Shown piece by piece: positions 1 through 12,810 of a DNA stretch of 26,291 nt. A program made the translations under genes and the position numbers. The notes beneath the pieces are model-generated. The model saw nothing but the letters and a program-made list of their open reading frames with translations, ran no database searches and was not told the origin of the DNA. Every line of letters begins with the position of its first letter. The stretch's first letter is position 1. The DNA is from Chrysochromulina parva (Eukaryota; Haptophyta; Prymnesiales; Chrysochromulinaceae): positions 1-26,291 of the forward strand of contig PJAB01000461.1 in assembly GCA_002887195.1 (NCBI GenBank), read 5' to 3'.

Positions 1-116
1 AAAACACAAAACACAGCCCTCAGGCGAGCAAGGCCAAAACACAAAAACACAAAACACACGCCCTGCGGGTGAGGCTAAAACACAAAAACACAAAGCGCCA
101 AAACACAGCACGGGGT
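1..116. repeat. AAAACAC-rich minisatellite
   Basis: About three degenerate units are visible. Each begins with A-rich blocks of the form AAAACACAAAAACAC and is followed by a GC-rich spacer of roughly 18-20 bases (GCCCTCAGGCGAGC..., then CGCCCTGCGGGTGAGGC..., then a shortened one). The array starts at the window edge, so its full length is unknown. It is not a TTAGGG or TTTAGGG telomere repeat. It lies beyond the 3' end of the minus-strand EXO1-like gene and holds no reading frame. It could equally be the edge of a larger satellite or a dispersed element. Confidence 0.75.
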
Positions 117-430: not shown

Positions 431-3400
431 CTAGCCGAGATGCACTAGCCTAGCACTTATCTGGCCATCGGGTGTCCAATCCGCGTCTCTGTTGACCGGC
501 ACCAGCTGTGCAGTGCGTTCGATGAGCACTCGAACGCCGGCGCCGCGGCCTCCCGCGGGCGGCTCCACCCGCGGCCGACGCGGCGGGGGGGGCTCTAGCG
601 CGGCATGTGAGCGGACGACCTTTTGGCGCGCACCCCCTCCTCCTACGTGTGAAGCCCCGTGTGAAGCCCTAGCTCGCTGTCGCACTTCGGCCAGCACGGC
701 GCGTGGCAGAGGCATCAGTGGCCGCATGAGCCGCAGCAGCTCTGTGAGAGGCGCGCGCAGCTCATGCGGTGGATGGGCGACGCGATAGCTCGTCACTCGG
801 AGGCGCATCTCTTGGCACGTGTTGCCTCCGCCGCGGCAGTCGCGCCGGCTCAGCAGGGCGGGCGTACAGCCGCATAGCCGGCCCGAGGGGCGGATGAGGT
901 CATTGAGCTCAGGCGCGAGCACGACGAGTGCCTCCGCCGGGACCGCCGGGATCAGGCTGACGAAGCGCTGCCAATCGAGCGGGTCGTGCGGCCCGGCACG
1001 CAGCGGCTGCAGCAGTGCCTGCCTCCAGCAGCACACCGTCGCTGCAAGCAGCGCTTCGTGCGCGGAGGGTGGCCATTGGGCCGCGGCCGGTAGGCTCTCA
1101 CGCCGGCGGCATTCGGTGCGCAGCCAGAGGAGCAGGGCGAGGGCGGGCCGCAGTGCCTTGAGGCACGCGGGCGAGTAGGAGGCGCAGGGAAGCCCCTTGG
1201 CGCTGGCCGACGCCGGTGGTGCACCGGCGGCGGCGGCGGCCTCTGCGGAGGCGGGAGCAGCGAGGAGCTCGGCGCTCAGTCCGAGCATGTCACTCACCAG
1301 AGCGTACAGAAGCCACGCACGCGTCGTCTCGGGGCACGTCGCGTCCTCGAGGCCCTCGAGAAGCGCCGGGCTCATGAGGAGAGCCACAGAGCCTGAAAAG
1401 GCCGCCGACTCGGCTATGATCGTGAGGGCAGTCGCGACAGCCGGAGGCGCTGCGGGTGTCTCAGCTGGCACAGCCGCTGGCACAGCCGCTGGCACAGCCG
1501 CTGGCACAGCCGCTGGCACAGCCGCAGGCACAGCGGAATGCGCCGAGGAAGCAACGCCCGAAGCGGCGGAACCAACCCGTGCTGCGGCGCGAGCGACGGC
1601 ACTGCGTGTGCTGGTAGACGCAACCTCGGAGCCCACAGCCAGCTGCGACGACGGTGCTTCTGTGGAGCTGCTCTCGCCTGCCGGCCGGCCCGCAACCGGC
1701 CGCGAGGGGGCCAGCGGCCGTGACGCTGGGCCCGGCTGCGAGCACAGCGGCTGCGAGCACAGCGGCTGCGAGCACAGCGGCTGCGAGCACAGCGGCTGCG
1801 AGCACGGCGCCCATGGGATGGCGCCAGCGCGAGGAGCCCACAGGGGCTGTGACTCGGACGACTGCATCGACGACGCCTGTCCAGCGAGCAAGGCCAGCGC
1901 CGCGAGGTCTGCCAGATCCTCCGCAGTGCCGCCAACGGCGCTGTCGGCCACCGCTGCCTCGTTCGCCGCCGCCGCCGCCGCTGCCGCCGCGTCCGTTTGC
2001 CAAGGCGCCTCGCCCTCGGCCGCAGCCGACTCCGAAAGTGCCATGATCACGTCCGGCGCTGAGTCCGCAGGCGCATCCATGGCAGCCGCGGCCGCCACGG
2101 CCGCTGCATTCGCCCGCTGCTGCTGGGCGGCCGCACCCTCTGCGCGCGCCTGGACCACGTGCTGCGAGACGTCCGAGATGGTGGGGAAGGAAGTGCGCGG
2201 CCGGAGAGTCATTGGGTCCAGGCTCGCCTCAGCACACACCAGACGTGCCATCTCGGGCGCGAGCATCCGGCCGAGGTGCTCAGGAGAGCGCTCGCCCGGC
2301 GGGAGCGCGTGCAGGTGCATGATCGCCTGGTGCTGCACGTCGAAGATGAGCGCGTGCCGGAAGACCTGGCGCACGCGCTCGCAATCAGTCGCAATCAGAC
2401 GCAATCAGACGCAATCAGTCGCAATCAGATGTCATCAGGGTGGCGCACCTGGCGCACGAGCTCGCAATCAGTCGCAATCAGTCGCAATCAGTCGCAATCA
2501 GATGTCATCAGGGTGGCGCACCTGGCGCACGCGCTCGGCGTCACGCTGGTACGCGGTGAGCTCTGCGTCGTCAAGCTTGAGGATCGTCCGCAGCGGCGGG
2601 TTGCGAAGCGCGCGTGCGAGCGAGCGGTGCTGGCGCAGCGCCTTATGTGCCGTCTTGATGCCCACCCCACCCTGTTTCTTCAGGTAGTCGGTGCCGCTGA
2701 GCACGCACAGCTCGGCAAAGAGGCCGGTGCGCCACGCGTCCCACTCGCCCACCCACTCGCCCTCGAATAAATGGCTGCCCTTGTCGTCCTCGGCGCTGCG
2801 CAGGTCGTCGAACTTGACGAGCTGCCCGGTGGCGCTCTCGAGGTCGAGCTTGTACATCGTGAGTGGGCAGCCGTACGGAAGCAGGTCCGAGTCCTCGCTG
2901 ATCGCAGCGGCACAATGGCCCTCGCGCACGAGGAAGGCGAGCTGCGGATCAGCCTCATACGGCGCGACGACGAAGGGCAGGCCGCGATGCCGCAGCTCGT
3001 CGATGAGCCGCATCGCCATCCACGGCTGCACCTTGGCCGCTTTCGCCAACTTGCTCGTCGCCTCCGACTCGTGCCCGCTCCGCAGCAGCTCCAGGCCCTC
3101 TTCGAGTGCCTTGCTGCGGAGCTCGCGGCGCTCGTCGCCGCTCTTCATCGGCAGCACAGCACCGTCGAACACAAAGAGCGGCCGCACCCCGTATTTCTCG
3201 AACGTAGCTATCAGCTTCAGTGGCTGATCGAGGAACCGATCGGTCGGCTGGCCGGCGAGCACGTCAAGCGGGCAGACAAAGAGGCCGCGATGGAGCCACG
3301 CCGAGGCGTCGATGGCGAGAGTCTGACCACAAAATTCGCTGAGCGAGACGCCCGATTGCACTATGGACTTGACGAAAGAGTGCAGACCCGCGACGCCCAT
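431..3400 (-). CDS. EXO1: EXO1-like 5'-3' exonuclease / flap nuclease (XPG/FEN1 family), two exons
   Basis: This is an XPG-family nuclease closest to exonuclease 1, which resects DNA 5'-3' in mismatch repair, double-strand-break processing and replication in the nucleus. I join exon 1 (3400-2522) to exon 2 (2365-431), giving about 937 residues. The start at 3400 is chosen because MGVAGL matches the family N-terminus, whose Gly2 is structurally needed; an upstream in-frame Met at 3478 would add 26 residues. Visible active-site acidic residues are D31, D79 (VFDG), E149 and D151 (PYEADPQ), D170 and D172 (SEDSDLLPYG) and D237 (SGTDYL), followed by the helix-hairpin-helix GVGIKTA. Exon 2 resumes with VFRHALIFD, the expected post-H3TH segment. 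The remainder is low-complexity Ala/Ser/Pro sequence with tandem QPLCS and VPAA repeats, then an unrecognised helical C-terminus. The nuclease domain is certain to family level. EXO1 rather than another XPG member is likely but rests on motif similarity. Confidence 0.88.
1464..1535 (-). repeat. 12-bp tandem repeat coding VPAA
   Basis: About six in-frame copies of GCTGGCACAGCC (plus-strand reading) encode VPAA repeats in the disordered middle of the EXO1-like protein. The unit is a multiple of three, so copy-number change keeps the frame. Confidence 0.85.
1733..1808 (-). repeat. 15-bp tandem repeat coding QPLCS
   Basis: Five nearly perfect copies of GGCTGCGAGCACAGC (plus-strand reading) encode repeated C-S-Q-P-L in the EXO1-like protein. 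The unit is in frame. The regularly spaced cysteines are unusual in a nuclear disordered region. Confidence 0.85.
2366..2521 (-). other. Predicted 156-bp spliceosomal intron made of two tandem units
   Basis: On the minus strand exon 1 ends GTGCGCCAG and the intron begins GTGCGCCACCC. It ends GAGCGCGTGCGCCAG before exon 2 GTCTTCC. Splicing is phase 0 and restores EXO1 continuity (ERVRQ joined to VFRHAL). The intron is exactly 83 + 73 bp, two copies of one unit, each starting at a CAG|GT boundary. The units contain 5 and 4 copies of a 10-bp iteron (TGATTGCGAC-like), so CTGAT, a match to the CTRAY branch-point consensus, recurs many times. Read-through meets an in-frame TGA soon after the donor (after VRHPDDI), so retention would truncate the protein. 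Confidence 0.8.
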
Positions 3401-11787: not shown

Positions 11788-12654
11788 CGAACCGCGCGGA
11801 GCAGTGTACATGTCAGCAGTACACGCTCCCGTACGTTCGGGGACCTCTCTCGCATGCATTCCCGCTTGCCCGCATGCATACCCCTGCGCCCGTCGCCCCG
11901 CGTGAAAATGAGGTTTGTTGGATAATTATTTGCGCTTTCATGATTCTGCCTTTCACGTTTCACGATGAATTTATCTCATAGATATCTTTAATCTTACGGT
12001 AGACGTCGTTCACACAGCCGGAGCCCGGACATGAGCTGCCCGGACGGCGTCCGGCGGCCGGGCGCGGGGGCGATTATAATTGTAGGGATTAGGAGGTTCA
12101 TCGATAACGAGGAAGGCGGTCCCGTCCGCCTCGCTGCGCGCCGGACGTCCGCCGGCGCCGCCGGCGGACGGGGTGCGTCGCGCGGGTCGCGTCTCTCGAC
12201 ACTCGAGGTCCCGCCTCCCGCGCCCGCCGCCGCTCCGCGAGGCCGCCGAGCCGACGAGCGCGACGCCGACGCCGGCGTTCGACGCCGGAAGAGGCAGCGT
12301 CGATGCAAGAGACTGAGTGAAACCCGCCCCTCCCCCCCCGCCGCGCCCGCCCGGCCGAGATGCCGAGTGCGGGGCGTGACTGTCGCGTGGGTTCTGGGTA
12401 CGGTGGGATATCAAGCAAAAGGCTTCATCCACCGCGAGAACACCGCGCATGGAGACCCGTGCGACTCGCCCGAGACGTTACCACTGGCCCATGCCCACTG
12501 GTACGGTAGGACTGGTAGCCCACGCACGGCGCATTTCACGGCACAGACCAGCCCCAGATTACTGTAATGACCATCACACTGTGGACCATCGCACAGCATC
12601 GGGCCTCGCGCACAGCATGTTATGCACATTGTTCATCGTGCTCATTGTGTTCAT

Positions 12655-12810
12655 TGTGTATCCGGCAAGGGAACACAAGTTCTCTGTATCATCGCGCACA
12701 TCATGCCAGCCATCCGCGTGCACATTGTTCTTTTGTGTAACCGGCAAGGGAACGCAAGTTCTCTGCCGTATGGTTCTCATGTGTATCCGGCAAGGGAACG
12801 CAAGTTCTCT
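12655..12810. repeat. Three copies of a 31-bp repeat
   Basis: TGTGTATCCGGCAAGGGAA followed by CRCAAGTTCTCT occurs at 12655-12685, 12734-12764 and 12780-12810, with one or two mismatches between copies. Spacing is irregular (79 then 46 bases), so this is not a simple tandem array. The spacers share CACATTGTTC and TCATTGTGT fragments. All copies have the same orientation. Its role is unknown. Confidence 0.85.

What the first reader, a model, noticed from the sequence alone, without database searches (positions are those of the whole stretch)
2366..2521. An intron that is exactly two tandem units, each bounded by CAG|GT and filled with branch-point-like iterons
On the minus strand the 156-bp intron of the EXO1-like gene is 83 + 73 bp. 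The two units differ by exactly one 10-bp iteron (TGATTGCGAC type, 5 versus 4 copies). Each unit starts at GTGCGCC and ends at GCGCCAG, so either unit alone, or both, could be removed as an intron. The iteron places CTGAT, a CTRAY branch-point match, about nine times. The 16 bases at the intron's end (CGAGCGCGTGCGCCAG) duplicate the 16 bases that end exon 1. This is the pattern expected of intron birth by tandem duplication of an AGGT-containing segment, or of an introner-like element with a target-site duplication, caught while still expanding.
Basis: partly seen in the sequence, partly recalled or inferred. Interest (0 to 1): 0.78.

Follow-up and report, generated by a model that had tools for sequence, protein, structure and literature searches.

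The report
Repeat-filled introns spreading through alga

Summary
In detail: the EXO1-like gene has a 156-bp intron (73 + 83 bp) whose 18-bp edge is present three times around ten-base iterons. Only removal of all 156 bp keeps the frame; leaving both units or removing one gives a stop at codon 301, so the 'either unit' claim fails. The iteron is repeated genome-wide: 1,155 dimer hits at up to 2 mismatches, 0 in the control; two related 3' modules have 2,346 and 2,076 hits. Many copies have the layout target copy / insert / target copy, with copies of 14-45 bp in 95 units, no terminal inverted repeats and mostly sense orientation. Half the units total 66-84 bp. An ORF from public assemblies, 99.7% identical, lacks nine such introns of a FadH-like gene exactly as placed; a 92% relative lacks the EXO1 one. 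Best reading: introner-like elements in a haptophyte-like alga, differing from described introners by iterons, long variable target copies and nesting. Junction microhomology favours repair-type templated insertion; that step is inferred. Occurrence is patchy: 2 of 10 sampled stretches.

The parts
2522..3400 (-). EXO1-like gene, exon 1 (ATG at 3400); codons 1-293
   Evidence: Translation; homologues carry PF00752/PF00867 and some are named exonuclease-1 by a source
2366..2521 (-). 156-bp GT-AG intron, phase 0, made of two nested or tandem units
   Evidence: In-frame stop if retained; only full removal keeps the frame; P0207 reads AERVRQ|VFRHAL across the junction without it
2449..2521 (-). Unit 1, 73 bp: GTGCGCCACCCTGATGACAT + 4 iterons + target copy
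2366..2448 (-). Unit 2, 83 bp: the same with 5 iterons
2520..2537 (-). Target copy 1 (CGAGCGCGTGCGCCAG|GT), spans the 5' splice site
2447..2464 (-). Internal target copy (one mismatch)
2364..2381 (-). Target copy 2, spans the 3' splice site; identical to copy 1
2462..2501 (-). Iterons of unit 1 (CTGATTGCGA x4), each with a CTGAT branch-point-like motif
   Evidence: coordinates counted on the sequence
2379..2428 (-). Iterons of unit 2 (CTGATTGCGA type x5)
   Evidence: coordinates counted on the sequence
431..2365 (-). EXO1-like gene, exon 2 to the stop codon

Best explanation
What it is: a spliceosomal intron built from two nested introner-like units, one of a multi-copy family in a haptophyte-like nuclear genome. 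How it works: an event adds DNA at a coding site, laid out as [target copy][insert X][target copy], often 66-84 bp in all. X is a short donor piece carrying a branch-point-like motif, either as an iteron array (CTGATTGCGA)n or as a compact module with its own 3' splice site (...CCTCATCAG or GCATGC..GTGCTCACCACGGCGCC..CCCCACAG). The copied target supplies the 5' splice site, and for iteron-only inserts often both splice sites, so splicing can restore the old coding sequence exactly. Later events at the edge of an existing intron would be hidden from selection and nest, giving composite introns such as this one. Shown: the family, the layout in many copies, mainly sense orientation, frame restoration, composite structure, and absence of nine such introns from a near-identical ORF. 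Inferred: that this ORF comes from spliced RNA, the order of nested events, the branch-site role of the iterons, and that the copying step is microhomology-guided templated synthesis at a staggered break or paired nicks rather than a transposase.
For: Genome-wide hits at up to 2 mismatches against reversed-pattern controls: 1,155 v 0, 2,346 v 0, 2,076 v 17. Flanking repeat score >=13 in 40 of 75 arrays v 13 of 375 mismatched flanks; >=20 in 24 of 75 v 1 of 375. Flanks that could be called coding (28 upstream and 21 downstream of 75 arrays) were all on the iteron strand; phase agreed in 6 of 7 testable. Seamless GT-AG: 50 of 95 units sense, 12 of 95 antisense. FadH-like gene of L025: 11 introns placed, all with these motifs or related repeats; P0088, found afterwards, aligns to residues 1-574 at 99.65% without a gap, across nine of them. 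P0207, 92% identical, spans the EXO1 junction. Microhomology >=2 bp with the target: 10 of 19 right and 11 of 25 left junctions v 7.6% and 7.3% in controls. No terminal inverted repeats: 3 of 95 v 4.1 expected. Periods of 66-84 bp in 28 of 50 self-spliceable and 22 of 45 other units.
Against: 35 of 75 arrays show no flanking copy at score 13; these may have short copies that I did not test. 45 of 95 units are not seamless on their own. Iteron-only rows include antisense coding calls: 1 of 27 upstream and 3 of 18 downstream. Only 2 of 10 evenly chosen stretches held units, and my scans found one iteron intron in the 26-kb window, so the family is patchy. No read data were seen: P0088 and P0207 are protein records whose DNA I could not read. 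A 54% relative (P0003) seems to run into a different repeat at about the same codon, which would make the site older or a hotspot. Microhomology also fits reverse-transcriptase-primed insertion. The period mode may be a minimum intron length: self-spliceable and other units differ (means 77.4 v 72.3 bp for periods up to 95; KS P 0.014).
Confidence: 0.6

Rival explanations
1. RNA-mediated introner: the 3' part of an excised intron RNA is copied into a nicked gene by target-primed reverse transcription. The 3' end (...CAG) is fixed, the 5' end is variable, and the target copies come from offset nicks.
For: In the two modules with their own 3' splice site the target copy begins with GT (after an optional CAG, AG or G) in 9 of 11 and 8 of 11 units; the second class was picked by its X end. 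Variable long target copies and microhomology also fit.
Against: Only 5 reverse-transcriptase (RVT_1) matches in the genome, 29.7-34.2 bits against a cut-off of 29.6, best E 3.8e-7; other RT families were not searched. Among iteron-only rows the target copy begins with GT in 4 of 74. Selection for splicing alone could place the AG|GT.
Confidence: 0.17
2. Non-autonomous DNA transposon (MITE-type) introner moved by a transposase in trans, as proposed for many algal introners.
For: High copy number, gene insertion and target-derived splice sites resemble introner families in PMC9860276. The 35 of 75 arrays without a long copy could hold short TSDs.
Against: Where found, target copies are 14-45 bp and variable, and X has no terminal inverted repeats; the survey itself, however, holds families without TSD or TIR. 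Iteron-only inserts differ in length and in phase at their ends.
Confidence: 0.08
3. Local tandem duplication of an AGGT segment creates the intron, and iterons then grow inside it by slippage.
For: Splice sites inside the duplicated target in 16 of the 20 seamless arrays; local unit arrays such as 73 + 83 bp here; iteron number varies between units.
Against: The same iteron and two further modules recur thousands of times and lie between target copies at different loci, which local slippage alone does not create.
Confidence: 0.1
4. An old intron whose interior is rapidly rewritten by repeat turnover; the flanking copies come from later duplication of the boundary.
For: P0003 (54% identical) appears to have a different repeat at about the same codon; composite introns show boundary duplications.
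Against: P0207 (92% identical) reads through the site if it is genomic; the 18-bp copies are still identical.
Confidence: 0.15

Closest known systems
Introners of algae and other protists (survey PMC9860276; includes Micromonas, Aureococcus, Florenciella, Chrysochromulina)
   Same: Many similar introns in different genes; splice sites recruited from the target (Florenciella introners take both, as iteron-only inserts seem to here); removal without change of the mRNA; aquatic microbial eukaryotes
   Different: There: 3-9 bp repeats in previously characterised TE-like families, TSD evidence in 49 of 130 and TIR in 72 of 177 families, and low-complexity families removed by hand. The Chrysochromulina example has 4-bp TSDs, carries its 5' splice site and co-opts the 3' one. 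Here: 14-45 bp copies, no TIR, iteron bodies, and modules that bring the 3' site
Amoebophrya introners (PMC7789003)
   Same: Repeated introns with direct repeats at their boundaries
   Different: There: 3-5 nt direct repeats and 8-20 nt inverted repeats, many non-canonical sites. Here the copies are long and inverted repeats are not above chance
Intron gain at staggered double-strand breaks in Daphnia (PMC4202315)
   Same: [quoted passage not shown] repeated side-by-side events enlarge the intron
   Different: There: such repeats are 4-12 bp. Here they are longer and the filler belongs to high-copy families
Direct repeats near intron borders (PMC11782384)
   Same: Direct repeats of 4-30 bp reported at or near the borders of all 213 introns examined, read as insertion footprints (abstract)
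   Different: Mean 11.4 bp there and mixed intron classes; here most often 20-27 bp around a shared insert
Tandem genomic duplication of AGGT segments (reviewed in PMC3443670)
   Same: Duplicated AGGT supplies both splice sites
   Different: An iteron or module shared with other loci lies between the duplicates here

Membership tests
Spliceosomal (GT-AG) intron | GT..AG ends with a branch-point-like motif; removal restores the frame | tested here: met
   11 CTGAT motifs; 937-aa ORF only after full removal
Spliceosomal (GT-AG) intron | Absent from mature RNA | tested here: inconclusive
   P0207 lacks it but may be an intron-less allele; P0088 lacks nine family introns in FadH; source DNA not seen
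Introner (broad sense) | Families of similar introns in different genes at high copy | tested here: met
   95 units in 30 of 41 regions, which were chosen around iteron hits apart from the window
Introner (survey pipeline of PMC9860276) | Similarity reaching both intron ends and not low complexity | tested here: inconclusive
   Pipeline not run. In listed units the 5' part is the target copy and differs between loci, and the iteron body is repetitive, which the survey filtered out
DNA-transposon introner | Short fixed-length TSD (3-9 bp) | tested here: not met
   Copies 14-45 bp, 44 of 95 at 20-27 bp; but the threshold was 14 and 35 of 75 arrays without a long copy were not tested for short ones
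DNA-transposon introner | Terminal inverted repeats | tested here: not met
   3 of 95 against 4.1 expected
Tandem genomic duplication intron | Intron consists of duplicated exon sequence only | tested here: not met
   Family insert between copies
Staggered-break (DSB repair) intron | Direct repeat of exon end at the opposite border, with filler | tested here: met
Staggered-break (DSB repair) intron | Origin at a break, repaired by end joining | not testable with these tools
   Needs fresh events; junction microhomology is indirect support

The most novel reading that the evidence does not exclude
A transposase-free introner system: intron modules spread as ~75-bp synthesis patches, in which a repair polymerase copies a piece of a donor intron (branch-point iterons or a 3' module) and re-copies 14-45 bp of the target by microhomology. 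Each event is a ready-made intron, and tandem branch-point iterons serve both as annealing sites for spreading and as splicing signals.
Probability: 0.35. Interest if true: 0.85.

Novelty: new variant of a known kind. Interest (0 to 1): 0.68.

Why it matters
How large numbers of introns arise is a long-standing open question. Here target copies are still legible at many loci, so pre-insertion sites, splice-site origin and order of events can be read locus by locus, and competing models (transposase, reverse transcription, break repair) make different predictions. It also suggests that surveys which discard repetitive introns may miss a productive class, and that repeat expansion of a branch-point motif can be part of an intron's birth.

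Tried and rejected
Alternative removal of single units: rejected, both give a stop at codon 301. Long fixed TSD and TIR: rejected for the 95 units. Viral source: exact scans of viral contigs for three family patterns gave 0 (the tool says that records very near this genome may be left out). Reverse transcriptase source: 5 RVT_1 loci just over the cut-off, not examined further. A first microhomology count was contaminated by repeat-like targets and a second read the wrong copy; only one search is used, and single high values in it (14 right; 8 and 6 left) may still come from repeat-like targets.

Rows dropped: one search keeps 95 of the 130 direct-repeat pairs (repeat-like targets, targets longer than 48 bp, unoriented and overlapping rows removed). 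Some of the 95 are still doubtful: L027 7273 looks like an ordinary coding repeat, and L037 523 and L039 502 have repeat-like targets (listed). The family counts use all 130 rows (11, 11, 74 and 34 'other'). The 40 regions were chosen around iteron hits and are biased; one search is the evenly chosen sample (10 stretches of 2.5 kb; 2 with units).

Papers: PMC9860276 abstract, section 4, part 1 of 3 of section 13, section 23; PMC7789003, PMC4202315, PMC3443670 and PMC4580454 passages found by term; PMC11782384 outline and abstract; others search listings only. I found no description of iteron introners with long variable target copies in the listings of searches of an open-access library; that is not proof that none is in print.

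Full report
OBSERVATION. The feature is at 2366-2521 on the minus strand inside an EXO1-like gene (ATG at 3400). Homologues carry PF00752 and PF00867 and some are named 'exonuclease-1' by a source. The intron is 156 bp: 73 bp then 83 bp in transcript order, with 4 and 5 TGATTGC iterons and 11 CTGAT motifs. CGAGCGCGTGCGCCAGGT is identical at both intron borders and occurs with one mismatch between the units. Retaining everything, or removing only one unit, gives a stop at codon 301; removing all 156 bp gives a 937-aa ORF.

THE FAMILY. The window is the whole contig C461 of a 45.07-Mb, 2,199-contig genome. The iteron dimer TGATTGCGACTGATTGCGAC has 557 + 598 hits at up to 2 mismatches; the reversed-pattern control has 0. 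Two further modules seen in fetched loci, TGATTGCCTCCCTCATCAGGT and GTGCTCACCACGGCGCCC, have 2,346 (control 0) and 2,076 (control 17) hits. Hits are not introns: one intron can hold several. The family is patchy: of 10 evenly chosen 2.5-kb stretches, 2 held target-copy units and 8 held none, and my scans found one iteron intron in the 26-kb window.

ANATOMY. In 41 regions (40 fetched around iteron-dimer hits, plus the window; hence biased), 75 arrays with three or more TGATTGC were found. A direct repeat of the flanks with score 13 or more was present in 40 of 75 against 13 of 375 mismatched flank pairs; at score 20 or more, 24 of 75 against 1 of 375; 35 of 75 had none at 13. Of the 40, 20 allow a seamless GT-AG removal in the iteron sense and 5 in antisense. 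By a codon-usage score trained on this genome, 28 upstream and 21 downstream flanks of the 75 arrays could be called coding, and all of them lay on the iteron strand; the phase agreed with seamless removal in 6 of 7 testable cases. In the rows the iteron-only class had a few opposite calls, 1 of 27 and 3 of 18.

Units have the form [T][X][T]. Of 95 filtered units in 30 regions, T is 14-45 bp with 44 of 95 at 20-27 bp (the search threshold is 14, so shorter copies are not counted). X ends share no inverted repeat beyond chance (3 of 95 v 4.1), and a seamless GT-AG exists in 50 of 95 sense against 12 of 95 antisense. T + X is 66-84 bp in 28 of 50 self-spliceable units and 22 of 45 others, where a uniform spread over the searched range would give 13%. 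T and X lengths are negatively correlated (-0.65 and -0.46, periods up to 95 bp). Minimum intron length may explain part of this. That units which cannot be spliced alone also peak near 74 bp hints at a ruler in the mechanism, but this is tentative: the two classes differ (means 77.4 and 72.3 bp, KS P 0.014), and the second class holds some repeat-like targets.

For modules with their own 3' splice site, T begins at the GT (after an optional CAG, AG or G) in 9 of 11 (CCCCACAG type) and 8 of 11 (CATCAG type, a class picked by its X end); for iteron-only rows in 4 of 74. So the modules bring the 3' site and borrow the 5' site, while iteron-only inserts tend to use splice sites already inside the copied target (16 of the 20 seamless arrays).

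A WORKED GENE. The minus strand of L025 encodes a 2,4-dienoyl-CoA-reductase (FadH-like) protein. Placing 11 GT-AG introns gives a 761-aa ORF; every intron carries the family motifs or related repeats; 10 of 11 would introduce a stop if retained, and the eleventh (77 bp) a frameshift; several are composites of more than one [T][X][T] unit. P0088, found afterwards, is a 580-aa ORF on a 1,787-bp contig ('lgn' source); it matches residues 1-574 at 99.65% without a gap, that is across introns 1-9. Its last residues (DRKSVV) look like read-through into a sequencing adapter (my reading, recalled). The simplest reading is spliced RNA; an intron-less genomic copy is not excluded because I could not read the DNA.

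THE WINDOW'S OWN INTRON. P0001 (99%, same species by identity) ends in the intron exactly as the window does, and P0030/P0035 cover exon 2. P0207, 92% identical over 934 aligned positions, on a 5,246-bp contig, reads AERVRQ|VFRHAL without interruption: either an intron-less allele in a close relative, so a recent gain, or a spliced RNA. Both agree that the 156 bp is not protein-coding and that the junction is as predicted. P0003 (54%) appears to run into a different repeat (VSLIRLIRL-like) at about the same codon (judged by eye); this is protein evidence only and would make the site older or a hotspot.

ORGANISM. For the FadH-like protein the closest named hit is Prymnesium parvum (67%), with Calcidiscus leptoporus at 63% and oomycetes at 61% or less among the 120 listed. 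For EXO1 Prymnesium parvum is also the closest named (42%), but a fungus follows at 39%. I infer a haptophyte; the species is not identified.

MECHANISM. Shown: shared inserts, target copies at many loci, predominantly sense orientation, frame restoration, composite introns. Inferred: the insertion chemistry. For iteron-only inserts the target shares 2 or more bases with the continuing iteron at 10 of 19 right and 11 of 25 left junctions against 7.6% and 7.3% for random nearby positions. Together with variable T and no TIR this favours microhomology-guided templated synthesis at staggered breaks or nicks. Target-primed reverse transcription of intron RNA is the main rival; five RVT_1 loci just over the cut-off were found, and other RT families were not searched. 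Sense bias needs no special mechanism, since antisense insertions in exons would not be spliced.

COMPARISON. In PMC9860276 previously characterised TE-like introners are given 3-9 bp repeats, some families lack TSD and TIR, and families rich in short repetitive motifs were removed by hand, so introns like these might have been set aside there. Daphnia staggered-break introns have exon repeats of 4-12 bp; Amoebophrya introners have 3-5 nt repeats plus inverted repeats; an abstract reports direct repeats of 4-30 bp, mean 11.4, near borders of 213 mixed introns. This system works like staggered-break intron gain combined with an introner's copy number. It belongs to introners in the broad sense but, where testable, does not meet the marks of the DNA-transposon type.

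VERDICT. Real, more than chance, and a new variant of a known kind: iteron introners with long variable target copies that nest into composite introns. Identity as a spliced introner-family intron: about 0.9. The proposed insertion chemistry: about 0.5.

Noticed in passing
L025 2074-5848 (minus strand): FadH-like gene with 11 introns, all of this repeat-bearing kind, several nested; a good test case for splicing and insertion order.
   Followed up: yes
L012 1611, L016 2972 and 3400, L021 613, L023 0 and 6384, L025 2877, L026 3837, L028 3532, L044 762: A second introner-like module without iterons (GCATGC..GTGCTCACCACGGCGCC..CCCCACAG), 2,076 genome hits at up to 2 mismatches, 11 units with the same target-copy layout.
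   Followed up: partly
window 1464-1534 and 1733-1809: 12-bp and 15-bp in-frame repeats in exon 2 of the EXO1-like gene; their copy number differs among P0030, P0035 and P0207.
   Followed up: no
window 1-94; L039 (upstream of the array at 502, minus strand): An AAAACACAAAACACA-type repeat at the contig start that also occurs in another contig; possibly an intergenic repeat family.
   Followed up: no
window 12654-12810: Three near-identical 31-33 bp direct copies (TGTGTATCCGGCAAGGGAAC...), with 46 bp and 14 bp between them and no iterons; no ORF of 180 aa or more is listed over them.
   Followed up: no
L049-L053: Five reverse-transcriptase (RVT_1) matches just over the cut-off, in open frames of 758-2709 aa.
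   Followed up: no
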